64,000 nucleotides of DNA from an uncultured Clostridia bacterium (GTDB lineage Bacteria > Bacillota > Clostridia > Lachnospirales > CAMZNU01). The stretch is taken from contig CAMZNU010000010.1 of NCBI GenBank assembly GCA_947313885.1, positions 1 to 64,000 on the forward strand, read 5' to 3'. A program made the translations under genes and the position numbers. The notes under the pieces were generated by a model. It had not been told where the DNA came from and did not search any database. It saw only the letters and a list, made by a program, of their open reading frames with translations. Shown here in pieces: positions 23,593 through 41,193 of this stretch; the stretch's first letter is position 1, and the number at the start of each line of letters is the position of its first letter.

Positions 23593-23694
23593 ATAAAAAA
23601 TAAATATAACTTATATTTATAAATTTTCAGATAAAAATTGACAAAAGATATTTAAACTTATATGATTAAAAAAATGATGTAGAAATACATAAAA
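23593..23694 (+). repeat. 102-bp perfect direct repeat, copy 2 (promoter of cobalamin riboswitch transcript)
   Basis: Identical to 21614-21715. Confidence 0.97.
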
Positions 23695-23830
23695 GGGAAT
23701 TAAGTGAAAATCTTAAAACTGCCCCAGCAACCGTAATATGGACGAAATGCAAATACCACTGCAATTAAATTAATTGTGGGAAGGTGCAAAGTAGGATGAA
23801 ATTAAGTCGGTAGACCTATCATTTTTAGTT
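23685..23830 (+). ncRNA. Cobalamin riboswitch
   Basis: AAAGGGAATTAAGTGAAAATC, ACTGCCCCAGCAACCGTAA, ACCACTG, GGAAGG...AAGTCGGTAGACC; upstream of btuFCD. Confidence 0.93.
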
Positions 23831-23954
23831 ACTATTCTTCTGGGATGTGAGAAAATGTAGGTTAATCAATTAAATATTAAATAAAAATAAAAATATTAAA
23901 GATTAAAACTATTTCGCTACCTGTAGAATTGTAATTTGTTAATTATAATTTATT

Positions 23955-24860
23955 ATGGAGGAGTTAATTATGAAAAAAGTTTTAGTCTTATTTTTATTGG
24001 TTTTTTTAGTAGGGTGTTCTAATAACACAGAAGTAAAAGAGGAAGTAAAAGAAATTGTAGAAACAAAAGAAGAAGTTAGTAGTATTAATAGAATAATTTC
24101 AACAGCACCATCAAATACAGAAGTTATAGTAGGTTTAGGTTTAGGCGATAAAATAGTAGCTGTAGATAACTTTAGTGATAAATCAGAAATTCCGCATGAC
24201 GTTGTGTTAATGGACATGATGGCACCAAATATGGAATTAATAATGTCTTTAGAGCCAGATGTAATTATTACATCAAATCTTAATAGTGAAGGTGGTAGCC
24301 CCTTTGATCAGATAATAGATTTAGGTTATAACGTTGTAAATATCGAAACAGCGAATTCAATAGAAGATATATATAGTAGTATAGAAGCAATAGGTATAGC
24401 AGTGGAAAAAGAAGAAGAATCAAAAATAATGGTAAAAAATTTAAGAGAAGAAATTGAAGAAATAAGAGAGAAATCAAAACAAATAGAAGAGAGAAAAAAA
24501 GTATATTTTGAGTTAGGAAATTTTTCAGGTAGTTTATATAGTTTGGGGAATGGAACGTATATAGATGAAATTATAAGTGTAGTAGGTGGAGAAAACATTT
24601 TTCATGAACAGGAAAGTTGGATAGTAGTGTCAGGGGAGAGTATAGTAGATAAAGATCCAGAGATAATAGTAACTAGTTCAAGTATGGCAGATTCAGTAGC
24701 AGAGGAAATAAAAACGAGAGAAGGATTTAGTGAAGTTGAAGCGATTAAAAATGATAGAGTACATGTGTTAAAAACTAGTAATTTGTCAAGAGGATCACAA
24801 AAAGTAATAATAGGGATAAGAGAACTTGCGGAGGTTATGTATCCAAATGTTTATAAATAG
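23955..24860 (+). CDS. btuF: Cobalamin ABC transporter substrate-binding lipoprotein (BtuF-like)
   Basis: Lipobox FLVGCS; periplasmic-binding motifs; downstream of B12 riboswitch. Confidence 0.9.
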   Translation: MEELIMKKVLVLFLLVFLVGCSNNTEVKEEVKEIVETKEEVSSINRIISTAPSNTEVIVGLGLGDKIVAVDNFSDKSEIPHDVVLMDMMAPNMELIMSLEPDVIITSNLNSEGGSPFDQIIDLGYNVVNIETANSIEDIYSSIEAIGIAVEKEEESKIMVKNLREEIEEIREKSKQIEERKKVYFELGNFSGSLYSLGNGTYIDEIISVVGGENIFHEQESWIVVSGESIVDKDPEIIVTSSSMADSVAEEIKTREGFSEVEAIKNDRVHVLKTSNLSRGSQKVIIGIRELAEVMYPNVYK

Positions 24861-25857
24861 TAGTAAACTAAAATTTATAATTTTAATTAGTGTTTTAATA
24901 GTAGTAATTTTTTTAGGTGTGGCATTAGGAAGTGTACATATAGGGTTAAGAGATATAATAGAAATATTTAAAATAAAAATATTTAATTTAGATATGGAAA
25001 TAGAAACACCAAAATACATGTCTATTATATGGCAGTTAAGATTTCCAAGAGTGTTAGTAGGCATTTTATCAGGAAGTGCATTGGCTGTTAGTGGATTATT
25101 GTTCCAAACTATATTAAAAAATCCTATAGCATCACCGTATACATTAGGTGTATCAACAGGGGCATCAATAGGAGTTGCTATAGGAGTTATATTAGGTGTT
25201 AGTAATTTTATGTTATCGGTATTAGGATTTACAGTATCGATATTAGTAGTAGGTTTTATTTTATTAGTAGCGAGCTTATATGATAAATCGCTATCAAATG
25301 TTTCAATAATTTTAATAGGAATGGTAACGTCGTTAACTCTTAATGGATTTTTAACTTTATTAATTCTTTTTGCAGGAGAATCAAGTGGACAAATAATATA
25401 TTGGCAAATGGGTTCATTATCGCTAAAAACCTATAAAAACTTTGTAGACTTATTAGTTGTATTAGTAATAAGTGTAACGTACATATCATTTAAACATGTA
25501 GAGCTAGATATTTTAAGTTTTGGAGAATATGAGGCGAAAAAAATAGGATTAGATGTTGGTAAATTAAAAATTATAATAATAGGTGTTGCAACATTATTAA
25601 CAGCAGTAGTAGTATCGTTAAATGGTGTAATAGGATTTATAGGGTTAGTGTCACCGCATATAGCGAGGAAAATTTTTGGAAGTAGACATAAATTATTAAT
25701 ACCAGGATCAATAATTATAGGAAGTATAATATTAGTAAGTGCAGATATGGTAGCGAGGACAGTTATGCAACCATCAGAGTTACCAGTAGGAGCTATAACA
25801 GCTTTAATGGGTGGACCATTTTTTGGATATGTGTATTTAAGAAAAGGGAAAAAATAA
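24826..25857 (+). CDS. btuC: FecCD/BtuC-family ABC transporter permease
   Basis: LRFPRVLVGILSGSALAVSGLLFQTILKNPIASPYTLGVSTGAS. Confidence 0.95.
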   Translation: MRRLCIQMFINSSKLKFIILISVLIVVIFLGVALGSVHIGLRDIIEIFKIKIFNLDMEIETPKYMSIIWQLRFPRVLVGILSGSALAVSGLLFQTILKNPIASPYTLGVSTGASIGVAIGVILGVSNFMLSVLGFTVSILVVGFILLVASLYDKSLSNVSIILIGMVTSLTLNGFLTLLILFAGESSGQIIYWQMGSLSLKTYKNFVDLLVVLVISVTYISFKHVELDILSFGEYEAKKIGLDVGKLKIIIIGVATLLTAVVVSLNGVIGFIGLVSPHIARKIFGSRHKLLIPGSIIIGSIILVSADMVARTVMQPSELPVGAITALMGGPFFGYVYLRKGKK

Positions 25858-26612
25858 TGTTAAAAATCGAAAATATGAGTTGTGGGTATGACAATAAAAA
25901 AGTAATAAAAAATTTAAGCATTGAATTAGAAAAAGGTAAGTTATATGGAGTAATAGGTATAAATGGGTGTGGTAAAAGCACCCTTTTAAATGCAATATCA
26001 TCATTAATAAAATATACAGGTTCAATTAAATTAGAAAATAAGGAATTAAAGAAATTAAAAATAATAGATAGAGCAAAAGAAGTAAGTTATTTATCACAAA
26101 GTATAGAAAATAATGTAGACTTTACGGTATATGAGACGGTAATATTGTATAGATATCCAATGATGAAAGGGTTAATAAGAACGCCGAGTCAAGAAGATAG
26201 AGAAACAGTAGAGAGTACACTAAAAAAATTAAATTTATTAGAATTTAGAGATAGAAAAATAAAAGAGCTATCAGGTGGTCAAAAACAACGAGTTTTTTTA
26301 GCAGGGGCAATAGTAAATGAGCCGAAGATTTTGCTGTTAGATGAGCCGACGAATCACTTAGATATAAAATATCAAATACAAACTATAGAGCTAGTAAAAA
26401 AAATTGGTAAAGAAAAAAATATAATAGTAGTTGCAGTTTTACATGACTTAAATATTGTTATGAAATATGTAGATAAAGTTTTGTTACTAAGAAAAGATGA
26501 GAAATATATATTTGATGATACGGATAAAGTGCTAAAAGGTTTTGATATAGAAGATGAATATAAATTCAACATAAAAAGATATATGGAGGATAGTTATAAA
26601 ATATGGGTATAA
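25857..26612 (+). CDS. btuD: ABC transporter ATP-binding protein (BtuD-like)
   Basis: GINGCGKSTLL, LSGGQKQRVFLAGA. Confidence 0.95.
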   Translation: MLKIENMSCGYDNKKVIKNLSIELEKGKLYGVIGINGCGKSTLLNAISSLIKYTGSIKLENKELKKLKIIDRAKEVSYLSQSIENNVDFTVYETVILYRYPMMKGLIRTPSQEDRETVESTLKKLNLLEFRDRKIKELSGGQKQRVFLAGAIVNEPKILLLDEPTNHLDIKYQIQTIELVKKIGKEKNIIVVAVLHDLNIVMKYVDKVLLLRKDEKYIFDDTDKVLKGFDIEDEYKFNIKRYMEDSYKIWV

Positions 26613-27274
26613 CTAAAGAAAAGTTTTGTTTATCATATAGTTTAGGAAAAGATAGTACATTAGCATTAAATAGGATGATTGAAAAAGGACACAGACCAGT
26701 AGCACTTATAATATCAGTGAATGAAGATTATAATCTTACGTGGTTTCATGGAGTAGAAAATAATTTTTTAGATAAAGTTTCAAAATCTTTAGGTATTAAA
26801 ATAATAAAAGCAGTAGGAAACGGTAAAAATTATAGAGAAGTTTTAAAGGATGGGTTAAAAGAAGCAAAAGGATTAGGAGCAACAAGTTGTGTTTTTGGGG
26901 ATATAGATATAGAAGAACATAAAGAATGGGGAAATAAAATTTGTGAGGAAGTAGGTTTAAAAAGTGTATACCCTCTGTGGCAAGAAAATAGAGAAACAAT
27001 AGTTAAAGAATTTATAAATAAAGGTTTTAAAGGGATAGTAAAAACGGTATCAAAAGAGTATAAAGTATCAAAAGAGTTTTTAGGACGTGATCTAAATTTA
27101 GAATTGTTAGAAGAGTTTAGAAAAATAGGAATAGACTTATGTGGTGAAAATGGTGAATATCATACATTTGTATATGATGGAAAACTATTTAAAGAGCCGA
27201 TAAAATTTAAAAAAATGTCTATACATGAAAGTGAATATTCATATTCGTTAATGTTAGGTGAATTAGATGGGTAG
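26603..27274 (+). CDS. Diphthine-ammonia ligase (Dph6)-like ATP pyrophosphatase
   Basis: SYSLGKDSTLALNRM PP-loop, CVFGDIDIEEHKEWGNKICEEVGLKSVYPLWQ, CGENGEYHTFVYDGKLF. Confidence 0.88.
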   Translation: MGITKEKFCLSYSLGKDSTLALNRMIEKGHRPVALIISVNEDYNLTWFHGVENNFLDKVSKSLGIKIIKAVGNGKNYREVLKDGLKEAKGLGATSCVFGDIDIEEHKEWGNKICEEVGLKSVYPLWQENRETIVKEFINKGFKGIVKTVSKEYKVSKEFLGRDLNLELLEEFRKIGIDLCGENGEYHTFVYDGKLFKEPIKFKKMSIHESEYSYSLMLGELDG

Positions 27275-28064
27275 AAGTGTTGCAATACTTGGTACAGGGT
27301 CATCAGTTGGAAAAACATTAATAACTATGAGTTTATGTTATTACTACGGATATGAAAAACAAATGTTAGTATCACCGTTTAAAGCATTTAATTTATCAGG
27401 AGAATCATTTGAATTAGATGGTAGAACTATAGGAAATGCACAATATATACAAAGTATAGCAAGTAATAAACTTTATAATTGTAAAATGAATCCTATATTA
27501 AAACAATACGATAATAATAAAATGAAAAATATTGTTTTAGGAGATGAAGTAGATAAGTTAGATATATGTGAAATGAAAGAAATAGTTAATAGAAGTTATG
27601 ATGATATAAAAAAAGAAAATGATATAATAATTATAGAAGGAAGTGGAAGTTTTTTAGAATTGAACATAGATGATTTAGATATTCCAAATTTAATGTTAGT
27701 AAAAGAAAAAAAAATACCGATAATTATTGTATGCGACATTAGTAATGGAGGTGTATTTGGAAATTTATATGGACATATAAATCTTTTAGATGAACAGACT
27801 AGAAAACTTGTAAAAGGTATTATAATAAATAAATTTGATGGTGAGCCTAAGTTTTTCGAAACGGGAAAAGAAATATTAGAAAAAATATGTAAAGTACCGA
27901 TATTAGGAATAATACCCAAAATAGAAAACACGCTACCAGAGGAAGATGTTAAACATGTATATAAACATAAGTGTTTAAATTTAGAAGATGAAATAAAAAA
28001 GGTTTCAAGAGAAATAATAAAACATATGGAAATGGAATTAATAACGAACATAATAAGAAAATAA
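27267..28064 (+). CDS. CobQ/cobyric acid synthase-like ATPase domain without C-terminal glutaminase domain
   Basis: GTGSSVGKTLITMSLCYYYG...VSPFKAFNLSGESFELDGRTIGNAQYIQSIAS...KMNPILK; protein ends at 265 aa. Confidence 0.78.
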   Translation: MGRSVAILGTGSSVGKTLITMSLCYYYGYEKQMLVSPFKAFNLSGESFELDGRTIGNAQYIQSIASNKLYNCKMNPILKQYDNNKMKNIVLGDEVDKLDICEMKEIVNRSYDDIKKENDIIIIEGSGSFLELNIDDLDIPNLMLVKEKKIPIIIVCDISNGGVFGNLYGHINLLDEQTRKLVKGIIINKFDGEPKFFETGKEILEKICKVPILGIIPKIENTLPEEDVKHVYKHKCLNLEDEIKKVSREIIKHMEMELITNIIRK

Positions 28065-28096: not shown

Positions 28097-28513
28097 TTAT
28101 TTAGGTGGCATAACTGTAGCAGTTCCATCTACAACAATTTTGCCATCTTGATTTGTGCAAGTAGTTTTAAGTACAATTCTATTTTTCTCTGTAATAATTT
28201 CTGTAACTTCAGCTTTAGCAGTAATTGTATCGCCAAATTTAACAGGTGCTAAAAACTTAAGATTTTGCCCTAAGTAAATAGTACCAGGACCTGGTAAATG
28301 CATACCAAGAACTGTAGAAATAAAAGAACCTACAAGCATACCGTGAGCAATTCTACCTTTGAACATACTTTTAGATGCGATCACATCATTTACATGTGCA
28401 GGATTTAGATCACCAGTAATACCAGCAAAAAGATAAACATCACTTTCAGATATAGTTTTTTGAAAAGATGCGGTATCACCTAATTTAATTTCTTTAATCG
28501 TTTTACCATTCAT
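28097..28513 (-). CDS. MaoC-like (R)-specific enoyl-CoA hydratase (start trimmed to ATG after AAAGGAGG)
   Basis: MNGKTIKEIKLGDTASFQKTISESDVYLFAGITGDLNPAHVND hot-dog fold. Confidence 0.88.
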   Translation of the reverse strand: MNGKTIKEIKLGDTASFQKTISESDVYLFAGITGDLNPAHVNDVIASKSMFKGRIAHGMLVGSFISTVLGMHLPGPGTIYLGQNLKFLAPVKFGDTITAKAEVTEIITEKNRIVLKTTCTNQDGKIVVDGTATVMPPK

Positions 28514-28684
28514 AATAAAACCTCCTTTTGGTGGAATTATAACATAAAACATATTATAGAGCAATATACATAGAAAAAGGGCGAAAATAATACAATATAA
28601 AAACAATACAAATAGAAAAAAAGTAAATAGTAATATATTAATTTTAATATGTATAGAAAAATTAGTGTAAACATACAAAAACTA

Positions 28685-28713
28685 TTGACAGTGAAAAAAA
28701 ATAAAAATATAAT
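28685..28713 (+). promoter_or_regulatory. Promoter of lysine riboswitch transcript
   Basis: TTGACA 28685-28690, 17 nt, TATAAT 28708-28713. Confidence 0.85.
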
Positions 28714-28714
28714 A

Positions 28715-28915
28715 AAGAAGATAGAGGAGCAGTTAGTAGGTAATAACATATGTTAAAGCTTAAAGTGGCTAATGATGTTATGAATTACTAAATTGCCGAA
28801 GAACAATATTAACTTTATAACATTGTTCTGGTACATAGGTTAAGCTATGTGTACTGTTACGAATTGTAAAGAGCTATCTACATACGGGGATACCCGTGTG
28901 TAGATAGCTCTTTTT
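28715..28915 (+). ncRNA. Lysine riboswitch (L-box) with intrinsic terminator 28871-28915
   Basis: AGATAGAGGAGCAGTTAGTA, AATTGCCGAAGAACAAT, CTGGTAC...ACTGTTA; 18-bp terminator stem + T run. Confidence 0.92.
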
Positions 28916-28934
28916 CTTTTAATAGGAGGATATT

Positions 28935-29315
28935 ATGGAATCTTTAATAAGAATGAGAATGAGTATGCACGATGCACATTATGGTGGGAACTTAGTAGAT
29001 GGTTCAAGAATGCTAAACCTTTTCGGGGATGTTGCAACAGAATTATTAATAAAAAATGATGGAGATGAAGGTTTATTTAGAGCGTATACGGAAGTAGAAT
29101 TTTTAGCACCTGTGTATGCAGGTGATTTTATAGAAGCAGTAGGTAAAATTGTTAAAACAGGAAACACATCAAGAACGATGGAATTTGAGGCAAGAAAAGT
29201 TATAGCACCAAGAACAGATATAAGTGATTCAGCTTGTGATGTATTAGAACAACCAATAGTAGTATGTAGAGCGAAAGGTGTATGTGTAGTACCAAAAGAA
29301 AGTCAAAGGGGGTAA
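28935..29315 (+). CDS. kal: 3-aminobutyryl-CoA ammonia lyase
   Basis: Hot-dog fold [24 protein letters not shown]; lysine fermentation operon. Confidence 0.9.
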
Positions 29316-29318
29316 AAA

Positions 29319-30134
29319 ATGGAGAAGTTAATAATCACGGCGGCTATTTCAGGTGCAGAAGTTACAAAAGAGCATAATCCAAATGTACCGTATACAGTAG
29401 ATGAAATAGTAAGAGAGGCAAAAAGTGCCTATGATGCAGGAGCATCAATAATTCATTTGCATGTAAGAAATGATGATGGAAAGCCAACACAAGATAGAGA
29501 AAGATATAGACAATGTATAGATGCTATAAAAAAACAATGTAAAGATGTAATAGTTCAGCCGTCAACAGGTGGTGCAGTTGGTATGAGTAGTGAGGAGAGA
29601 TTGCAACCAGTTGATTTAAAACCAGAGATGGCTACGTTAGATTGTGGTACTTGTAACTTTGGTGGTGATGAAATATTTATAAATACAGAAAACATGATAA
29701 AAGAGTTTGGGCAAAAAATGATAGATTTAGGAGTTAAGCCAGAAGTTGAAGTATTTGATAAAGGAATGGTTGATACAGCTATAAGAATGAATAAAAAAGG
29801 ATTTATAAAATCGCCTATGCATTTTGATTTTGTGTTAGGTGTAAATGGAGGAATGAGTGCTACGCCACGAGATGTAGTATATATGGTAGAAAGTATACCA
29901 ACAGGTTCAACGTTTACAGTAGCAGGAATAGGAAGACATCAATTTCCGATGGCGACACTAGCGATATTAATGGGTGGTCATGTAAGAGTAGGATTTGAAG
30001 ATAATTTAAATATTGAAAAAGGTGTATTAGCAAAATCAAATGGAGAGCTTGTAGAGAAAGTTGTAAGAATAGCAAAAGAGTTAGGAAGAGAAATAGCTAC
30101 ACCAGAAGAAGCTAGAAAAATTTTAAACTTATAG
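29319..30134 (+). CDS. kce: 3-keto-5-aminohexanoate cleavage enzyme (BKACE)
   Basis: ITAAISGAEVTKEHNPNVPYT, SIIHLHVRNDDGKPTQD. Confidence 0.95.
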   Translation: MEKLIITAAISGAEVTKEHNPNVPYTVDEIVREAKSAYDAGASIIHLHVRNDDGKPTQDRERYRQCIDAIKKQCKDVIVQPSTGGAVGMSSEERLQPVDLKPEMATLDCGTCNFGGDEIFINTENMIKEFGQKMIDLGVKPEVEVFDKGMVDTAIRMNKKGFIKSPMHFDFVLGVNGGMSATPRDVVYMVESIPTGSTFTVAGIGRHQFPMATLAILMGGHVRVGFEDNLNIEKGVLAKSNGELVEKVVRIAKELGREIATPEEARKILNL

Positions 30135-30142
30135 GGGGAAAA

Positions 30143-30793
30143 ATGAATAAGGTAAAAAAAATAGAGGAGTTAGAAAATTTATTTTTTGATGGCATGACGT
30201 TAATGATCGGAGGATTTTTAGGTTGTGGAACGCCAGAGAAATTAATAGATTACGTAGTTAAGTTAAATATACAAAATATAGAAATAATAGCAAATGATAC
30301 AACATTTGATAATGTAGGTGTTGGTAAATTAATATCAAATGGTCAAGTAAAAAAAGTGATAGTGACCCATGTAGGAACGAATCCAACTACAGGAAAATTA
30401 ATGTTTGAAAATAAATTAGAAGTTGAGTTATCACCACAAGGAACATTAATAGAAAGAATACGAGCAGGTGGATATGGTTTAGGTGGAATATTAACAGCTA
30501 CAGGAGTTGGTACAGAAGTAGAAGAGGGTAAAGAAAAAATAAAGATTAAAGGTAAAGAATATTTATTAGAATTACCGTTAAGAGCAGACGTATCGTTAGT
30601 GTATGGAACTAAGTGCGATAAGTTTGGAAATACATATTATGAAGGTACGACAAAAAACTTTAATCCTATGATTTGTATGGCGGGGGATAAAGTAATAGTG
30701 CAAAGTGATGAAATAGTAGAAATAGGACAAATAGACGTTGAGAAAATTATGACACCAGGAGTAGTAGTAAACTACGTAGTGAAGGGGGAGTAA
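30143..30793 (+). CDS. Butyryl-CoA:acetoacetate CoA-transferase subunit alpha (AtoD-like)
   Basis: [21 protein letters not shown]. Confidence 0.92.
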
Positions 30794-30794
30794 G

Positions 30795-31457
30795 ATGATT
30801 AATGAAAAAACAGTAAAAGAAGTAATAGCAAAAAGGGTAGCAAGAGAATTAAAAGAAGGACAGTTAGTAAATTTAGGAATAGGGTTACCAACAATGGTAT
30901 CAAACTATGTTGATAAAAATAAAATGATAACATTTCAATCAGAAAATGGAATGGTAGGAATGGGAAAAGCACCAGAAGAAGGAAAGGAAAATGACAATAT
31001 AAAAAATGCAGGTGGATCACATGTAACGGTAGAAAAAGAAGGTGCATTTTTTGATTCTAGTTATTCGTTTGGTTTAATAAGAGGTGGACATGTAGACGTT
31101 ACAGTATTAGGAGCGTTACAAGTAGATGAAAAAGGAAATGTATCTAATTGGAAAATACCAAATAAACTGTTACCAGGAATGGGCGGTGCTATGGATTTAG
31201 TAGAAGGAGCAAAAAAAGTAATAATAGCAATGCAACATACAGCAAGAGGGAAAGAAAAAATATTAAAGGAATGTAATTTACCATTTACAGCGAAGGGGGT
31301 AGTAAACTTAATTATAACAGAATATGGTGTAATGGAAGTAACTAAAGATGGTTTATTATTAAAAGAGATAAATAAAGAAACAACAGTAGAAGAAATGCAA
31401 AAAGTAACAGGAGCTAAGTTAATAATATCAGAAGATTTAAAAGAGATGACAGTATAA
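30795..31457 (+). CDS. Butyryl-CoA:acetoacetate CoA-transferase subunit beta (AtoA-like)
   Basis: [23 protein letters not shown]. Confidence 0.92.
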
Positions 31458-31480: not shown

Positions 31481-32518
31481 ATGAAAACAGGATGTAAATT
31501 TGGAACGCATAGAGTAATATCACCATTAAACGTATTACCACAAACAGCAACGAAAATTAATAATGATATGGAAATTTATGATAATGAAATATTAATAGAT
31601 GTAATGTCATTAAATATTGATTCAGCAAGTTTTACACAAATTGAAGAAGTTTGTGGCGGAGATGTAGAAAAAATAAAAAAAATGATAATGGAGATAGTTG
31701 AAGAAAAAGGTAAAATGCAAAACCCAGTAACAGGTTCAGGAGGAATGTTAATAGGTAAAGTATCAAAAATAGGTGACAAATTAAAAGGTAAAATCGATTT
31801 AAAAGAAGGAGATAAGTTAGCAACATTAGTATCATTATCGTTAACACCATTAAAAATAGATACGATAATAGACATTAAAAAAGATATAGATAGAGTGGAT
31901 ATTAAAGGTAAAGCGATATTATTTGAAAGTGGAATATATTCAGTATTACCAAATGATATGGAAGAGACGTTAGCATTAGCGGCATTAGACGTAGCAGGAG
32001 CACCAGCACAAGCTAGAAAATTAGTAAAAAAAGATGATTATGTAGTAGTGTTAGGAGCAAATGGTAAGTCAGGATTATTATGTTGTTATGAAGCTATGAA
32101 AAAGGTTGGGGATAATGGATTAGTAGTTGGGCTTGTAAGAAATGAAAAAGGGAGAGTTGCATTAGAAAAAACAGGTTTTTGCCATAAAGTAGTAATAGCA
32201 GATGCACAAGAGCCTATAACAGTATTAAATGAATTAATGAAAGTATCAGGAAATAAAGAATATGATGTAGCAATTAATGTTGTTAACGTTCCAAATACAG
32301 AAATGTCTACAATATTACCAGTAAAAGATGATGGAATAGTATACTTCTTCTCAATGGCAACAAGTTTTACAAAAGCGGCATTAGGAGCAGAAGGTGTAGG
32401 AAAAGACGTTAATATGATAATTGGAAATGGTTATACAAGAGGTCATGCAAAAGTGACTATAGAAGATGTTAGAGAAAGTAAAGTTATAAGAGAAATATTT
32501 GAAAACATGTACGTGTAG
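31481..32518 (+). CDS. kdd: L-erythro-3,5-diaminohexanoate dehydrogenase
   Basis: GCKFGTHRVISPLNVLPQTATKINND. Confidence 0.93.
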   Translation: MKTGCKFGTHRVISPLNVLPQTATKINNDMEIYDNEILIDVMSLNIDSASFTQIEEVCGGDVEKIKKMIMEIVEEKGKMQNPVTGSGGMLIGKVSKIGDKLKGKIDLKEGDKLATLVSLSLTPLKIDTIIDIKKDIDRVDIKGKAILFESGIYSVLPNDMEETLALAALDVAGAPAQARKLVKKDDYVVVLGANGKSGLLCCYEAMKKVGDNGLVVGLVRNEKGRVALEKTGFCHKVVIADAQEPITVLNELMKVSGNKEYDVAINVVNVPNTEMSTILPVKDDGIVYFFSMATSFTKAALGAEGVGKDVNMIIGNGYTRGHAKVTIEDVRESKVIREIFENMYV

Positions 32519-32548: not shown

Positions 32549-33829
32549 ATGGCAGTTATAAAAAATGAAGTATCAGAGGTTAATAGAAAAAGATTTTTTA
32601 GTGACGTAACAAATGAGCAATGGGATGATTGGAAATGGCAAGTAGCAAATAGAATAGAAACTTTAGATGATTTAAAAAAATATGTGTCATTAACAGAAGA
32701 GGAAGAAGAAGGTATTACAAAATGTTTAGGAACGTTAAGAATGGCGATAACGCCACATTATTTAACATTAATAGATTTAGAAGATCCGTATTGTGCAATA
32801 AGACGTCAAGCAGTACCACAGGGATTAGAAACGTATAGATCAGAAGTTGATCAAGAAGATCCATTACACGAAGATGGAGATTCACCAGTGCCAGGGCTTA
32901 CACATAGATATCCAGATAGATGTTTATTGTTAGTAACAGATCAATGTTCTGTATATTGTAGACACTGTACGAGAAGACGTTTTGCGGGACAAAAAGATGA
33001 TTCATTAGCGACAGCGGGAATAGATAGAGCAATAGAATATATAGCAAAAACAAAAGAAATAAGAGATGTAGTAATATCAGGGGGAGATGCTTTATTAATA
33101 AGTGATAAAAAATTAGAGCATGTATTAAAAAGTTTAAGAGCAATACCACATATAGAAATGATAAGAATAGGAACAAGAACACCAGTAGTTTTACCACAAC
33201 GTATAACAGATGACTTATGTAATATGCTTAAAAAATATCAACCAATATATTTAAATACACATTTCAATCACGGAAAAGAAATGTCAACAGCGTCAATAGA
33301 TGCATTAAATAAATTAGTAAATGCAGGTGTATGTGTAGGGAATCAATCAGTATTATTAGCAGGAGTAAATGATTGTGTACATGTTATGAAAGATTTAGTA
33401 ACGACATTAACATATAACAGAGTTAGACCGTATTATATATATCAATGTGATTTATCGTTAGGGTTATCACACTTTAGAACGTCAGTATCAAAAGGTGTAG
33501 AAATAATAGAAGGACTAAGAGGACACGTATCAGGATTATGTGTACCAACGTTTGTAGTAGATGCACCAGGAGGCGGCGGTAAAATACCTGTAATGCCACA
33601 ATATGTAATATCACAAAACCATAATAAAACGATATTAAGAAACTTCGAGGGAGTAATTACGACGTATGAAGAGCCAAGTGATTATGTGCCAGGATGTAAA
33701 TGTGAAGTATGTAGAGGTGATAAAGTAGTTAATAAGGTAGGAGTTGCAGGACTGTTAAATGGTCAGCAAATTGCATTAGAGCCAGAAGGTTTAGAAAGAA
33801 AGAAAAGAAGTGAAAAAAATAAACATTAA
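32549..33829 (+). CDS. kamA: L-lysine 2,3-aminomutase (radical SAM)
   Basis: DQCSVYCRHCTRRRF radical SAM CxxxCxxC. Confidence 0.97.
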   Translation: MAVIKNEVSEVNRKRFFSDVTNEQWDDWKWQVANRIETLDDLKKYVSLTEEEEEGITKCLGTLRMAITPHYLTLIDLEDPYCAIRRQAVPQGLETYRSEVDQEDPLHEDGDSPVPGLTHRYPDRCLLLVTDQCSVYCRHCTRRRFAGQKDDSLATAGIDRAIEYIAKTKEIRDVVISGGDALLISDKKLEHVLKSLRAIPHIEMIRIGTRTPVVLPQRITDDLCNMLKKYQPIYLNTHFNHGKEMSTASIDALNKLVNAGVCVGNQSVLLAGVNDCVHVMKDLVTTLTYNRVRPYYIYQCDLSLGLSHFRTSVSKGVEIIEGLRGHVSGLCVPTFVVDAPGGGGKIPVMPQYVISQNHNKTILRNFEGVITTYEEPSDYVPGCKCEVCRGDKVVNKVGVAGLLNGQQIALEPEGLERKKRSEKNKH

Positions 33830-34859
33830 TATGGATGAAATAATAGAAGGAATAATAAAAAATAGAAGTGTATCAATTATAGGAATGGGAAAAAACGTAG
33901 GTAAAACTACAGTATTAAATTATTTAATAAATAAGACCAAGGGTAAAATAGCTCTTGGTCTTACTTCTATAGGAAGAGATGGGGAAACGGAAGATATAGT
34001 AACGTCAACGAGTAAACCAAAAATATATGTATATGAAGGAACTGTAATAGGTACGGCAAAAAATCTTTTAATGAGAAGTTGTATAACATATGAAGTAATA
34101 GAAAGTACACATATAAAAACACCTATGGGAAAAATAATAATAGTTAAGGCGTTATCAAGTGGATATATAGAAATAGGTGGGGCGTCAATAAATGAGCAAA
34201 CAAAAACTATAATTAATAAGATGAGAAATTTGGGTAGTGAATTAATAATAGTAGATGGTGCAATATGTAAAAAAACGACTTCATCACCATTGATAACGAA
34301 TAGTACAATTTTATGTACAGGCGGAGCTATAAGTAATGATGTAAATAAAGTAGTAGAGGATACTATAAACACGATAAAATTATTAACTATGAAAAAAGCT
34401 AATGATAATATAAGGAAAACAAGTTATGAAATATTAGAAAAAAGCGATGTAGGAATTATTGACAACGATAATAATGTTAAAAATATTAATATAAAAACAG
34501 CGCTAGGAAATAGTAAAATTATTATTGACGAGACAGATGAAAATAGTAAATACATAGTAATAAAAGGTGTAGTAGTAGAAAGTATTTTAGAAGACTTTAT
34601 GAAAAGTGGAAAATGTAGAGATGTAAAAATTGTAGTGCTAGACGGTACAAAATTATTTATAAACAAAGAAGTGCTAAATAAATTTGAAAAAAAATGTAAA
34701 GGCATAGAAGTACTAGAAAAAATAAATGTATGTCTAATAGCGGTAAACCCAACGTCTCCAAATGGAAATAAATTAAATGGAGATGAGGTTATAATGAAAT
34801 TAAGAAAAAGAACAAATGTACCAGTAATAGACGTATGTAGAGAAGGTGATACAAATTAG
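33810..34859 (+). CDS. kamB: KamB, lysine 5,6-aminomutase reactivase-associated P-loop protein
   Basis: GMGKNVGKTTVLNYL; between kamA and kamC. Confidence 0.8.
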   Translation: MKKININMDEIIEGIIKNRSVSIIGMGKNVGKTTVLNYLINKTKGKIALGLTSIGRDGETEDIVTSTSKPKIYVYEGTVIGTAKNLLMRSCITYEVIESTHIKTPMGKIIIVKALSSGYIEIGGASINEQTKTIINKMRNLGSELIIVDGAICKKTTSSPLITNSTILCTGGAISNDVNKVVEDTINTIKLLTMKKANDNIRKTSYEILEKSDVGIIDNDNNVKNINIKTALGNSKIIIDETDENSKYIVIKGVVVESILEDFMKSGKCRDVKIVVLDGTKLFINKEVLNKFEKKCKGIEVLEKINVCLIAVNPTSPNGNKLNGDEVIMKLRKRTNVPVIDVCREGDTN

Positions 34860-36306
34860 TTATTTAAATGGAAAGTATGATGAAATAGGGGTTAATTATA
34901 TAATAGATAAATTATATATACACACTGATTTTGGAAAAGAAGAAAGAAAGAATATAAGGATTTATAAAAGTAAGGATATTGGAAAACTAAAAGATGAGCT
35001 AAATAGAGTTGAGCAAATAATAAAAAAAGTCGATGAAAACAAATATCAACAAATATTATTAGAGATGGTTAAAATAAAAGACATACGGGGAACGTTAAAA
35101 AGATGTGAAAATAATTTAGTGTTAGATGTAGTAGAATTTTTTGAAATTAAAAATTTTGCTATAACAACAAATAAAATAATGAAAATATATAAAACCATGG
35201 ATTTAAATTTAGATAATATTGAATTTAAAAGCCAAGAAGAAGTAGTTAAAATTTTAGATGATGGAAAAGGTTTAAATACTTTTCATATATATAACGGCTA
35301 TAGTGAAAAAATATCAAAAATAAGAAATGCAAAAAAAGTAATAGAGAATAAAATATTTTCAGAAGTGGATTATGAAAATAGAGAAAAGTTAAAAGAAGAA
35401 AGAATAAATATAGTAATAGAAGAAGAGGAAGAAGAGTTAAAAATCAGAAAAAAACTAACAAATGAAATTAGGGGTAACATAGATAAGTTTTACAGCAATA
35501 TAAAAAGTATAGGTACGTTAGATTTTTTACTAGCCAAAGGGAGATTAGCGAAGGCGTACAATTGTTCTAAGCCGATAATAAATAATAATAATATTATTAT
35601 TTTAAAAAATATGGTTAATATGCAAGTAAAAAATAGACTAGAAACAAAAGGAAAAAAATACACGGAAATAAGTGTTAATTTAGAAGATGGGGTAACAGTG
35701 CTTACAGGTGCTAACATGGGCGGTAAAAGTGTCGCACTAAAAACTACTGTAATAAATGTTTTATTATCACAGCTGGGATTTTATATATTTGCACAGTATG
35801 GAGAGATAGGTATTGTAGATTATATAGAATTTATTTGTAACGATTTAGAGGAAGAAAAAGAAGGGCTAAGTACATTTGGCGGGGAAATAGTTAAATTAAA
35901 AGAAATTATTTTCAAGCTTAAAAGAGGTAGAGGATTTGTAATATTAGATGAATTTGCCCGTGGAACTAATCCAAAAGAAGGTAGTGTAATATTAAAATCA
36001 TTAATTAAATATTTAAACAAACTAAATAGTACAGTAATAATTGCGACCCATTTAGATTTAGAAATAGAGGGAAAAGTTAAGAGATTAGAAGTAGTAGGTT
36101 TTAAAAACATAGATTTAAAAAAGATGAAAAAGAAAATAGAACTTAATAGTAGAGATGGAGTTAAATTATTACAAAAATATATGGATTACACTATAGAGGA
36201 AGTTAATGATAATAAAGAAGTGCCAAAAGATGGTATAAACATATGTGAATTGTTAGGGTTAGAAAAAGAAATTATCGATGTAGCAAAAGAGTATTATAAA
36301 AAATAG
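34846..36306 (+). CDS. kamC: KamC, MutS-like ATPase of lysine 5,6-aminomutase reactivation (GTG start)
   Basis: GANMGGKSVALKT MutS-type Walker A, FVILDEFARGTNPKEG. Confidence 0.85.
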   Translation: MIQISYLNGKYDEIGVNYIIDKLYIHTDFGKEERKNIRIYKSKDIGKLKDELNRVEQIIKKVDENKYQQILLEMVKIKDIRGTLKRCENNLVLDVVEFFEIKNFAITTNKIMKIYKTMDLNLDNIEFKSQEEVVKILDDGKGLNTFHIYNGYSEKISKIRNAKKVIENKIFSEVDYENREKLKEERINIVIEEEEEELKIRKKLTNEIRGNIDKFYSNIKSIGTLDFLLAKGRLAKAYNCSKPIINNNNIIILKNMVNMQVKNRLETKGKKYTEISVNLEDGVTVLTGANMGGKSVALKTTVINVLLSQLGFYIFAQYGEIGIVDYIEFICNDLEEEKEGLSTFGGEIVKLKEIIFKLKRGRGFVILDEFARGTNPKEGSVILKSLIKYLNKLNSTVIIATHLDLEIEGKVKRLEVVGFKNIDLKKMKKKIELNSRDGVKLLQKYMDYTIEEVNDNKEVPKDGINICELLGLEKEIIDVAKEYYKK

Positions 36307-36317
36307 GAGGAAACATT

Positions 36318-37874
36318 TTGAACAGTAAATTAAATTTAAATTTAAAATTAGTAGATGAATCACGTGAAATAGCAAAAAAAATAGCCGAAGATACACAACT
36401 TTTCATTGAAAAGCATACGACGGTATCAACAGAGAGAACAATTTGTAGACTTTTAGGAATAGATGGAGTAGATGAATTTGAAGTGCCATTGCCAAACGTT
36501 ATAGTAGATAACGTTATGGAAAAGGGAGGGTTAAGCGTTGGACTTGCTACATATATAGGTAATGCTATAGTACAACTTGGGTTAACTCCTAATGAAATAG
36601 CTAAAAAAGTTTCAAAAGGTGAATTAGATTTAACGACAATGGAATTAGCTGATGAAATGGATATTAAATTAGCTGTAGAAAAAGTTGCAAAAGAAACAGT
36701 AGAAAAAATAAAAGCGAATAGAGGAAAAAGAGAAAGTTACTTAAATGAATTTGGAGATAAAGAAGGACCATATTTATACGTAATAGTAGCTACAGGAAAT
36801 ATATATGAAGATATTACACAAGCAAAAGCAGCGGCAAGACAAGGGGCAGATATAATAGCAGTAATAAGAACTACAGGACAAAGTTTATTAGATTATGTGC
36901 CGTACGGAGCGACTACAGAAGGTTTTGGAGGTACTTATGCGACACAAGAAAATTTTAGATTAATGCGTGAGGCATTAGATGAAGTAGGAGAAGAAGAAAA
37001 AAGATATATAAGGTTATGTAACTATTGTTCAGGGTTATGTATGCCAGAAATAGCGGCAATGGGAGCGACAGAAAGATTAGATGTAATGTTAAACGATGCT
37101 TTATATGGAATATTATTTAGAGATATAAATATGAAAAGAACGTTAGTAGATCAATATTTTTCAAGAGTAATAAATGGATTTGCAGGAGTTATAATAAATA
37201 CAGGAGAAGATAATTACTTAACGACAGCAGATGCAGTAGAAGAAGCATATACTGTATTAGCGTCACAATTTATAAACGAGCAGTTTGCGGTAACGGCCGG
37301 AATGAAAGAAGAACAAATGGGATTAGGTCATGCTTTTGAGATGGATCCTAGTTTAAAAGATGGATTTTTATTAGAATTAGCCCAAGCACAAATGGCAAGA
37401 GAGATTTTCCCAAAAGCACCATTAAAATATATGCCACCTACAAAATTTAAGACAGGAGATATATTTAAAGGACAAATACAAGATACGTTATTTAATATGG
37501 TAACTATAATGACAGGACAAAAACTACATTTATTAGGAATGTTAACAGAGGCGTTACATACACCGTATATGTCTGATCGTGCATTATCTATAGAAAATGC
37601 ACAATATATATTTAATAATATGGAATCATTAGGAGAAGAAATAACTTTCAAAAAAGATGGTATGATACAAAACAGAGCTAATTCAGTATTAAAAGAAGCA
37701 AATGATTTATTAAAAGAAATAGACAAAAATGGTTTATTTAAGACGATAGAAGAAGGTAAGTTTGCAGGTATAAAAAGACCTATAGATGGCGGTAAAGGAT
37801 TAGAAGGTGTTGTAGAAAAAGGTGAAAAATATTTCAATCCGTTTATTAGGTTAATGTTAGAGGAGGTTAAATAG
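36318..37874 (+). CDS. kamD: Lysine 5,6-aminomutase alpha subunit
   Basis: Full-length KamD-like; upstream of cobalamin-binding KamE. Confidence 0.95.
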   Translation: MNSKLNLNLKLVDESREIAKKIAEDTQLFIEKHTTVSTERTICRLLGIDGVDEFEVPLPNVIVDNVMEKGGLSVGLATYIGNAIVQLGLTPNEIAKKVSKGELDLTTMELADEMDIKLAVEKVAKETVEKIKANRGKRESYLNEFGDKEGPYLYVIVATGNIYEDITQAKAAARQGADIIAVIRTTGQSLLDYVPYGATTEGFGGTYATQENFRLMREALDEVGEEEKRYIRLCNYCSGLCMPEIAAMGATERLDVMLNDALYGILFRDINMKRTLVDQYFSRVINGFAGVIINTGEDNYLTTADAVEEAYTVLASQFINEQFAVTAGMKEEQMGLGHAFEMDPSLKDGFLLELAQAQMAREIFPKAPLKYMPPTKFKTGDIFKGQIQDTLFNMVTIMTGQKLHLLGMLTEALHTPYMSDRALSIENAQYIFNNMESLGEEITFKKDGMIQNRANSVLKEANDLLKEIDKNGLFKTIEEGKFAGIKRPIDGGKGLEGVVEKGEKYFNPFIRLMLEEVK

Positions 37875-38656
37875 TGAGTAGTGTAAAATTAAATACAGAA
37901 GTGTTAAATACAGAATTAGATTTATCAAAAATAAAACCATATGGCGATACTATGAATGATGGTAAAGTACAATTAAGTTTTACATTACCGATAGTTGATG
38001 ATGAAAAAGGTATGGAAACGGCAAAAGAACTAGGTAAAAAAATGGGATTAAAAGATGTTGGAGTAGTGCATCATAAACCATTGGATAAAGGGTTTACGTT
38101 TTATGTAGTGTATGGAACGGTAGAACATACAGTAGATTATAATAAAATAGAAGTAGAAGTGTTAGATATAAATGTTATGTCTATGAAAGAAACTAATGAA
38201 TATATAAAAGAAAATATTAAGAGAAAAGTAGTAATGATAGGTGCAAGTACAGGAACAGATGCCCATACAGTGGGAATAGATGCGATAATGAACATGAAAG
38301 GATTTGCAGGTCATTACGGATTAGAAAGATACGAAATGATAGAAGCATATAATTTAGGAAGTCAAGTACCGAATGAAGAATTTATTAAAAAGGCGATAGA
38401 GTTAAAAGCTGATGTACTGTTAGTATCACAAACAGTAACACAAAAAGATGTACACATTGCAAATTTAACAAACTTAGTAGAGTTATTAGAAGCAGAGGGA
38501 ATAAGAGATAAAGTAATATTAATAATGGGTGGACCTAGAATATCACAAGAATTAGCAAAAGAATTAGGATATGATGGCGGGTTTGGAATTGGGAAGTTTG
38601 CCGATGACATAGCAACTTTTGCAGTGACAGAAATAGTAGAAAGAAAATTAACATAA
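37874..38656 (+). CDS. kamE: Lysine 5,6-aminomutase beta (B12-binding) subunit
   Basis: GASTGTDAHTVGIDAIMNMKG B12-binding DxHxxG motif. Confidence 0.95.
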   Translation: MSSVKLNTEVLNTELDLSKIKPYGDTMNDGKVQLSFTLPIVDDEKGMETAKELGKKMGLKDVGVVHHKPLDKGFTFYVVYGTVEHTVDYNKIEVEVLDINVMSMKETNEYIKENIKRKVVMIGASTGTDAHTVGIDAIMNMKGFAGHYGLERYEMIEAYNLGSQVPNEEFIKKAIELKADVLLVSQTVTQKDVHIANLTNLVELLEAEGIRDKVILIMGGPRISQELAKELGYDGGFGIGKFADDIATFAVTEIVERKLT

Positions 38657-39624: not shown

Positions 39625-41067
39625 TTATTTAGTAGTTGTTTCATCAGTTTTAAACATACCGATTCCAAGAATAGCAAATACAATTTCCATTATTGGATTT
39701 ATTAAATTTAAAAATGCAAATGGTAAATAAGCAAGAGTGCTAACACCAAGGTACGTACTCATAGTAACCCCACATGTATTCCAAGGAACCAATGCAGAAG
39801 TTAAAGTACCACCCGATTCTAGTACACGAGATTGAACCTTAGGGTGTAAGTTAAGTTTTGAAAAATCTTCTTTAAACATTTTACCTGGTAAAATAATTGC
39901 TATATATTGATCGGCTGTAACTATGTTAATTAAAATTGCTGTAAATATGCTAGTAGCTACTAATGGTGCTGGTTTTGTTGTAAATCTTTTTAAAGAGTTA
40001 ACAACAGAATCTAAAAATCCAGTAGTTTCTAGGACTCCACCGAAACACATAGCAAGAATAATTAGTGAAATAGTCCAAAGCATAGAATCAAGTCCACCAC
40101 GATTTAGAAGATCATTAATATTATCAACAACGTCTGGTGAGTATGCTGTTAAAGAGCTAGTATCAAAACTATAACCATAATGTAAAGCGTCTAAAAACTC
40201 TGAAAAAGTGTGACCTGTTTGTATAAATAAAGCTGAAATTCCACCTAAAAATACAGATAATAATAATCCTGGCATCGCTGGTATTTTAAATATAACCATA
40301 ACAACGATTAAAACAGGAGGTAGTAACAATAGAGGCGAGATAACAAAAGTATCATTAAGTATAGCTTTAAATTCTGCGATGCTACTAACATCGGCACCAG
40401 CACCGCCACTAGTAAGCCCTATAATTAAAAATAATATTAGGGCTATAACAAAACTAGGTATAGTTGAATATGTCATCGACTTAATATGTTCAAACACTGT
40501 AGTTCCAGAAATAGCAGGAGCTAAGTTAGTAGTATCAGATAGAGGTGACATTTTATCACCAACATATGCACCAGATACAACAGCACCAGCTGTAATTGCT
40601 AAATTTAAATCAAGAGCTGTCGCAATACCGATAAGAGCGATACCAACAGTTCCCGCCGTTGTCCATGACGATCCTATTGAGAGAGCAATAATTGATGACA
40701 ATAAAGCTGCGGCAAAATAAAAAATCTTCGGATTAATAATATCTAATCCGTATGTAATCATAGTAGGAACAATTCCCCCCATAATCCATGCTGATATTAG
40801 CATACCAATAATCATAAGAATAATTATTGATTGCATAGCAACAGTAATAGTGTTAATCATACCTTTTTCAATATCCTCCCAAGATTGCTTATCGATAACA
40901 ACAGCTAAAATTGCCGCTGATATTGTAGCAAAAATTAATGGAATATGTGGATCTAAACCAAGAACTATAATTCCATAACCTAGAAAAACCATAGCAAATA
41001 CTATTGATAAATAGCCTAAGATAGTACGTAGATGTGTAATTTTACTTTTTTCATTTTCAGTATTCAT
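39625..41067 (-). CDS. nhaC: NhaC-family Na+/H+ antiporter
   Basis: Multi-TM NhaC signature GAVVSGAYVGDKMSPLSDTTNLAPAI. Confidence 0.93.
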   Translation of the reverse strand: MNTENEKSKITHLRTILGYLSIVFAMVFLGYGIIVLGLDPHIPLIFATISAAILAVVIDKQSWEDIEKGMINTITVAMQSIIILMIIGMLISAWIMGGIVPTMITYGLDIINPKIFYFAAALLSSIIALSIGSSWTTAGTVGIALIGIATALDLNLAITAGAVVSGAYVGDKMSPLSDTTNLAPAISGTTVFEHIKSMTYSTIPSFVIALILFLIIGLTSGGAGADVSSIAEFKAILNDTFVISPLLLLPPVLIVVMVIFKIPAMPGLLLSVFLGGISALFIQTGHTFSEFLDALHYGYSFDTSSLTAYSPDVVDNINDLLNRGGLDSMLWTISLIILAMCFGGVLETTGFLDSVVNSLKRFTTKPAPLVATSIFTAILINIVTADQYIAIILPGKMFKEDFSKLNLHPKVQSRVLESGGTLTSALVPWNTCGVTMSTYLGVSTLAYLPFAFLNLINPIMEIVFAILGIGMFKTDETTTK

Positions 41068-41193
41068 ATAAAATCCTCCCAAATAAAAAATAAATTCCAC
41101 TACAATCGTATGTGAAAAAAACATAAAAGTCAATATTTTGCAAACAATTTTTATGAATTATGACGTATAGATAAAAAAGTAAAGTGAAAAACT

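What the first reader, a model, noticed from the sequence alone, without database searches (positions are those of the whole stretch)
28715..28915. Lysine riboswitch predicted to be an ON switch for lysine fermentation
A canonical L-box precedes kal-kce-...-kamE. P1 pairs AGATAG (28719-28724) with CTATCT (28874-28879), and that same 3' strand is the 5' arm of the 18-bp terminator GAGCTATCTACATACGGG/CCCGTGTGTAGATAGCTC. Lysine-stabilised P1 should therefore block the terminator and activate transcription, the reverse of biosynthetic lysine riboswitches. LYS elements upstream of lysine catabolic genes have been proposed as activating in a few anaerobes, but this sequence shows the mechanism clearly.
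Basis: partly seen in the sequence, partly recalled or inferred. Interest (0 to 1): 0.65.

Follow-up and report, generated by a model that had tools for sequence, protein, structure and literature searches.

The report
Lysine-activated riboswitch for lysine fermentation genes
An RNA switch in front of a bacterium's lysine-eating genes appears to turn them on when lysine is present, by letting the lysine-bound RNA hold one arm of a transcription stop signal; this logic was already proposed for a few anaerobes, and what is added here is a comparison with relatives that supports it and shows that some of them chain several stop signals in a row.

Summary
Window 28714-28884 is a lysine riboswitch (RF00168, 56.9 bits; gathering score 30), the only one in this genome, preceding a complete lysine-fermentation operon (kal to kamE). 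Its P1 3' strand CTATCT (28874-28879) lies inside the 5' arm of a very strong terminator (28868-28913, -36 kcal/mol), so P1 and terminator exclude each other: a predicted ON switch.

Comparison supports this. A terminator 5' arm covers the P1 3' strand in 19 of 24 kal-linked leaders, against 3 of 60 sampled class leaders, nearly all on biosynthesis or transport genes. In the 19, 103 of 114 positions pair in both alternative helices (best of 5000 shuffles: 88). The other five look like ON relays: a hairpin over or beside P1', without a U-tract, whose 3' arm can pair with the 5' arm of a downstream terminator. About ten leaders carry two or three serial terminators.

The concept is not new (Barrick & Breaker 2007; Mukherjee 2017). 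The window's switch is a new member of a known kind; the multi-stage relay in relatives is the more novel lead. No lysine response was measured.

The parts
28685..28713 (+). Predicted sigma-70 promoter TTGACA-17-TATAAT; start site predicted at about 28719-28721
   Evidence: 12 of 12 consensus matches; the start position is inference
28714..28884 (+). Lysine riboswitch aptamer (RF00168)
   Evidence: 56.9 bits, gathering score 30, full model 1-182; only copy in the genome
28719..28724 (+). P1 5' strand AGATAG
   Evidence: model alignment; the same letters recur in the terminator 3' arm
28761..28766 (+). L2 loop UAAAGU, predicted kissing partner of L3
   Evidence: 6-nt loop of the MFE fold, exact complement of L3
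28812..28817 (+). L3 loop ACUUUA, predicted kissing partner of L2
   Evidence: 6-nt loop of the MFE fold, exact complement of L2
28874..28879 (+). P1 3' strand CTATCT, shared with the terminator 5' arm: the switching strand
28868..28913 (+). Intrinsic terminator, 21 bp, -36.4 kcal/mol, followed by a U-rich tract
28924..28929 (+). Shine-Dalgarno sequence AGGAGG of kal, outside both competing helices
   Evidence: sequence
28935..29315 (+). kal, 3-aminobutyryl-CoA ammonia lyase
   Evidence: NF052388 197.7 bits, cut-off 160
29319..30134 (+). kce, 3-keto-5-aminohexanoate cleavage enzyme
   Evidence: NF052387 468.7 bits, cut-off 382
30143..31457 (+). CoA-transferase subunits A (30143-30793) and B (30795-31457)
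   Evidence: TIGR02429 and TIGR02428 over cut-off
31481..32518 (+). kdd, 3,5-diaminohexanoate dehydrogenase
   Evidence: NF052381 over cut-off
32549..33829 (+). kamA, lysine 2,3-aminomutase
   Evidence: TIGR03820 577 bits, cut-off 525
33810..36306 (+). kamB (33810-34859) and kamC (34846-36306), lysine 5,6-aminomutase reactivase
   Evidence: NF052386 and NF052383 over cut-off
36318..38656 (+). kamD (36318-37874) and kamE (37874-38656), lysine 5,6-aminomutase, B12-dependent
   Evidence: NF052384 and NF052385 over cut-off

Best explanation
This is a lysine-sensing transcriptional ON riboswitch for the lysine-fermentation operon. Without lysine the 5-6 bp P1 helix is displaced as the terminator 3' arm (which repeats the P1 5' sequence AGATAG) emerges, the terminator forms and RNA polymerase stops before kal. 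With lysine bound, the closed P1 holds CTATCT, so only the upper 9 bp of the hairpin can form; that short hairpin is not followed by U residues and polymerase reads through. Shown: aptamer, shared strand, terminator, operon, and conservation of the double pairing. Inferred: ligand identity, direction and size of the response, and control by co-transcriptional kinetics.
For: Aptamer and position; L2-L3 complementarity; complete operon; terminator 5' arm contains all six P1' bases. Among kal-linked leaders 19 of 24 have a terminator 5' arm over P1', against 3 of 60 sampled class leaders (Fisher p 1.6e-11). In these 19, 103 of 114 P1' positions pair in both P1 and the terminator, against a shuffle mean of 78 and a maximum of 88 in 5000, including T-to-G changes at P1' position 6 matched by A-to-C in both the P1 5' strand and the terminator 3' arm. 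Folding by length: P1 costs almost nothing up to 28901, a ligand bonus of 6 kcal/mol keeps it at 28904-28907, and it is lost by 28910, so the crossover falls where polymerase would be at the U-tract. Control genes are mainly asd, dapA, lysC, lysA, lysP-like and NhaC-like.
Against: No lysine binding or termination was measured. The finished terminator is about 15 kcal/mol better than P1 plus the upper hairpin, so readthrough depends on kinetics that were not computed. The aptamer score (56.9) is at the low end of the kal-linked set (53-95 bits), with a shortened P2. The shuffle test ignores relatedness, terminator pairs were chosen by folding, and three of the 19 leaders (L169, L239, L240) are close relatives. 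The 60 controls are from one class and from the best-scoring matches, while kal-linked leaders come from a wider set.
Confidence: 0.83

Rival explanations
1. Conventional OFF switch: lysine-bound P1 frees a downstream terminator from an antiterminator and represses the operon.
For: It is the usual logic of this class, demonstrated in B. subtilis and E. coli according to PMC11477304.
Against: No second terminator lies between 28913 and kal, and the only terminator needs the very strand that P1 occupies. Repression of lysine breakdown by lysine would also make little metabolic sense.
Confidence: 0.04
2. The aptamer no longer senses lysine (it has decayed or changed ligand, for example to beta-lysine), so the terminator is constitutive or answers to another signal.
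For: Model score at the low end of kal-linked relatives (56.9 against 53-95) and a shortened P2.
Against: All conserved junction segments are kept (AGAGG.GC, GCCGAAG, CUGG, CUGU, AG.GCUA in the alignment), and L2 and L3 remain exact complements.
Confidence: 0.05
3. The -36 kcal/mol terminator is too strong for lysine-bound P1 to resist, so the leader is mainly a terminator with weak ligand control and the operon is driven some other way.
For: The terminator wins by 12-15 kcal/mol once complete.
Against: The decision is made while the 3' arm is emerging, where the model predicts ligand dependence; strong terminators of -15 to -32 kcal/mol sharing P1' are common among relatives.
Confidence: 0.08

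Closest known systems
Lysine riboswitches upstream of kal/kce in Clostridium sticklandii, Fusobacterium nucleatum and Thermoanaerobacter (PMC5584792, Mukherjee 2017)
   Same: Same aptamer class, same target genes; [quoted passage not shown]
   Different: The passages read do not describe the strand competition or test it; this genome is a lineage of its own (no other genome of its family is held) with the full kal-to-kamE operon behind one switch.
ON-logic lysine, glycine and adenine riboswitches as described by Barrick & Breaker 2007 (PMC2258182)
   Same: Ligand-stabilised pairing buries part of the terminator stem, the mechanism proposed here.
   Different: Nothing in principle; here the claim is tested by comparing catabolic with biosynthetic and transport leaders.
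Bacillus subtilis lysC L-box (OFF switch; general knowledge, and PMC11477304)
   Same: Same aptamer and ligand.
   Different: There the P1 3' strand belongs to an antiterminator; here it belongs to the terminator.
Na+ riboswitch of the Dehalobacter lysine-2,3-aminomutase gene (PMC9337991)
   Same: The aptamer overlaps a terminator stem and acts as an ON switch; an aminomutase gene is controlled.

Membership tests
Lysine riboswitch (RF00168) | Covariance model match above the curated score | tested here: met
   56.9 against 30 bits, model 1-182
Lysine riboswitch (RF00168) | Five-helix junction with conserved core segments | tested here: met
   AGAGG.GC, GCCGAAG, CUGG, CUGU and AG.GCUA all present in the alignment
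Lysine riboswitch (RF00168) | L2-L3 kissing interaction | tested here: met
   UAAAGU and ACUUUA loops are exact complements (read); the tertiary contact itself was not tested
Lysine riboswitch (RF00168) | K-turn in P2 | tested here: inconclusive
   P2 is shortened and no clear K-turn was seen by inspection; PMC2258182 notes that a number of variants lack it
Lysine riboswitch (RF00168) | Binds L-lysine | not testable with these tools
   needs in-line probing or calorimetry
ON-type (terminator-sharing) lysine riboswitch | P1 3' strand is part of the terminator 5' arm | tested here: met
   six of six bases; 19 of 24 kal-linked leaders against 3 of 60 controls
ON-type (terminator-sharing) lysine riboswitch | Target is a lysine-consuming pathway | tested here: met
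   kal to kamE over curated cut-offs
ON-type (terminator-sharing) lysine riboswitch | Lysine raises readthrough | not testable with these tools
   needs single-round transcription
OFF-type L-box | Separate downstream terminator with P1' in an antiterminator | tested here: not met
   single terminator, which itself contains P1'

The most novel reading that the evidence does not exclude
Kal-linked lysine riboswitches form a distinct ON set in which one ligand event can be passed along a chain of hairpins: lysine-bound P1 breaks hairpin 1, whose freed 3' arm then invades the 5' arm of the next terminator, and so on through two or three serial terminators. The window holds the minimal, single-stage form. 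In five leaders hairpin 1 has no U-tract, and the downstream terminator could only be controlled by such a relay. An alternative for the serial forms is that the P1 5' strand re-pairs with each copied P1' strand in turn.
Probability: 0.45. Interest if true: 0.66.

Novelty: new member of a known kind. Interest (0 to 1): 0.42.

Why it matters
Lysine riboswitches are usually described, and considered as drug targets, as OFF switches. A catabolic ON set with a clean, directly readable shared strand gives an easy test of how one aptamer is wired to opposite outputs, and the window's form is the simplest one to test. If the relay in the relatives is real, it would be a natural RNA strand-displacement cascade that tightens control of a butyrate-forming amino-acid fermentation pathway.

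Tried and rejected
A regular-expression search for lysine aptamers missed 12 of 18 known kal-linked cases and was dropped for Rfam scans. The criterion 'any stable hairpin containing P1'' did not separate the groups well, because long antiterminator-like hairpins in control leaders also contain P1'; requiring a compact hairpin followed by a U-tract did. That the serial terminators follow whole second aptamers is excluded by spacing (about 40-60 nt between units). That the aptamer re-forms with a copied P5-P1' half was not clearly supported: most copies lack a clear P5 hairpin, although AUGRAG and CUAUUG recur. Relay complementarity is specific to its own leader in the relay-like set (2 of 5000 permutations as good) but not in the copied-P1' set (485 of 5000), where it follows from the copying itself. 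In the 60 controls an antiterminator using P1' was clear in only part of the set, so I do not claim that each control is a proven OFF switch. Rodionov 2003 was not held, and searches of the open library found no experiment on an ON lysine riboswitch; most subscription papers are not covered.

Full report
What is there. The leader at 28714-28915 is real and as described. Rfam finds a full-length lysine riboswitch aptamer at 28714-28884 with 56.9 bits, and it is the only one in the 1.55 Mb genome. The ten genes that follow are the lysine-fermentation set in one direction: kal, kce, two CoA-transferase subunits, kdd, kamA, kamB, kamC, kamD, kamE. The genome also encodes lysA and dapA, yet no lysine riboswitch sits on them, so the only lysine sensor of this type is on the catabolic operon.

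Anatomy. P1 pairs AGATAG (28719-28724) with CTATCT (28874-28879). The terminator 5' arm starts at 28868, contains all six of these bases, and pairs with 28893-28913, where the letters AGATAG recur: the terminator 3' arm imitates the P1 5' strand and competes for the same partner. The terminator has 21 bp and -36.4 kcal/mol; none like it is expected in shuffles. If P1 is closed, only the upper 9 bp (28880-28888 with 28893-28901) can form, and these are followed by AGATAGCTC rather than U residues. A perfect TTGACA-17-TATAAT promoter at 28685-28713 places the start site at about 28719-28721, so the P1 5' strand is predicted to be the very 5' end of the RNA; in most relatives the best promoter match lies further upstream. 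The loops of P2 and P3 are exact complements (UAAAGU and ACUUUA), as expected for the kissing pair of this class.

Energetics. Folding the transcript at increasing lengths shows that P1 costs almost nothing until 28901 is exposed, then about 1 kcal/mol at 28904, 5 at 28907, 12 at 28910 and 15 at 28913. A ligand bonus of 6 kcal/mol moves the crossover from about 28904 to past 28907. Because polymerase covers roughly the last 10 nucleotides or more, this is the stretch exposed while it crosses the U-tract (inference). The switch can therefore work during transcription but not at equilibrium.

Comparison. I collected kal loci from the genome collections and scanned most of them for the aptamer, giving 24 kal-linked riboswitches including the window. 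Sixty riboswitches from the same class served as controls. Their first downstream genes fall mainly into groups of asd (24), NhaC-like (12), dapA (9), lysP-like permease (8) and lysC (2), with single cases of lysA, a lysine-type ABC binding protein, YfcC and an unassigned protein (the NhaC-like name is from inspection, since NCBIfam gave no hit for it). The terminator 5' arm covers P1' in 19 of 24 kal-linked leaders and 3 of 60 controls (Fisher p 1.6e-11; relatives are not independent). In the 19, 103 of 114 P1' positions pair both with the P1 5' strand and with the terminator 3' arm, against 78 on average and 88 at most in 5000 shuffles. At P1' position 6, six leaders have the C/G/C triplet where the window and others have A/T/A, a change matched on both partners.

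Relays in relatives. The other five kal-linked leaders (L011, L018, L027, L029, L035) have a stable hairpin over or beside P1' without a U-tract, followed by a separate terminator. The 3' arm of the first hairpin is complementary to the 5' arm of that terminator clearly in three of them (L018, L027, L035: 7, 3 and 1 of 300 shuffles as good) and weakly in two (L029 and L011: 37 and 38 of 300). L027 is telling: its first-hairpin arm differs from the others (ATGCTAAAA) and its terminator arm differs to match (TTTTAGCAT). Across the seven leaders of the relay-like set, which also includes L028 and L169, pairing with the own partner beats permuted partners in all but 2 of 5000 permutations. Ten leaders have a terminator over P1' and then one or two more terminator-like hairpins (L028, L032, L033, L049, L074, L082, L106, L169, L239, L240; the second of L082 and the third of L106 are by inspection). 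In L032, L033, L049, L074, L082 and L106 the later 5' arms repeat the P1' motif CTATTG preceded by an AUGRAG-like segment. The simplest reading is a relay in which each broken hairpin frees an arm that blocks the next terminator. In L033 this complementarity is no better than chance, so the relay may not hold for all. The window has one stage only.

What is known. Barrick & Breaker 2007 (PMC2258182) state that certain lysine riboswitches have ON logic and bury pieces of terminator stems, citing their reference 21, which I take to be Rodionov 2003 (not held). Mukherjee 2017 (PMC5584792) lists kal/kce riboswitches in C. sticklandii, F. nucleatum and Thermoanaerobacter as positively regulated. 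A 2024 review of C. difficile (PMC11477304) describes lysine riboswitches as demonstrated OFF switches in B. subtilis and E. coli. I found no experimental test of an ON lysine riboswitch in the open library.

Verdict. Observation confirmed; ON interpretation supported at about 0.83; novelty low to moderate for the window itself, with a more interesting lead in its relatives.

Noticed in passing
L169:1205-1480 and the same region of L239, L240: Kal-linked leaders with a P1'-sharing terminator followed by a second terminator; the 3' arm of the first is complementary to the 5' arm of the second and its lead-in over about 19 nt, better than all 300 shuffles.
   Followed up: partly
L106:2574-2910; also L074, L082, L032, L049, L033: Two or three serial terminators after one lysine aptamer, each 5' arm repeating the P1 3' strand motif CTATTG with an AUGRAG-like prefix.
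   Followed up: partly
L027:2643-2880: Hairpin-1 3' arm and terminator 5' arm both differ from those of relatives yet remain complementary, a matched change that favours the relay.
   Followed up: yes
window 23658-23837 and 23955-28064: Cobalamin riboswitch (72.8 bits) upstream of what looks by inspection like a corrinoid-uptake gene set, directly before the lysine operon whose kamDE enzyme needs B12 (ORFs).
   Followed up: no
window 39625-41133, - strand: NhaC-like antiporter gene (by inspection) beyond the operon; in 12 of the control leaders an NhaC-like gene carries a lysine riboswitch, here it has none.
   Followed up: no
window 28097-28525, - strand: Divergent MaoC-like hydratase gene upstream of the riboswitch (by inspection of the ORF), possibly tied to the same CoA-ester pathway.
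   Followed up: no
L138 and L160 leaders (asd): Two of the three controls in which a terminator-like hairpin overlaps P1' although the gene is asd; their logic was not worked out.
   Followed up: no
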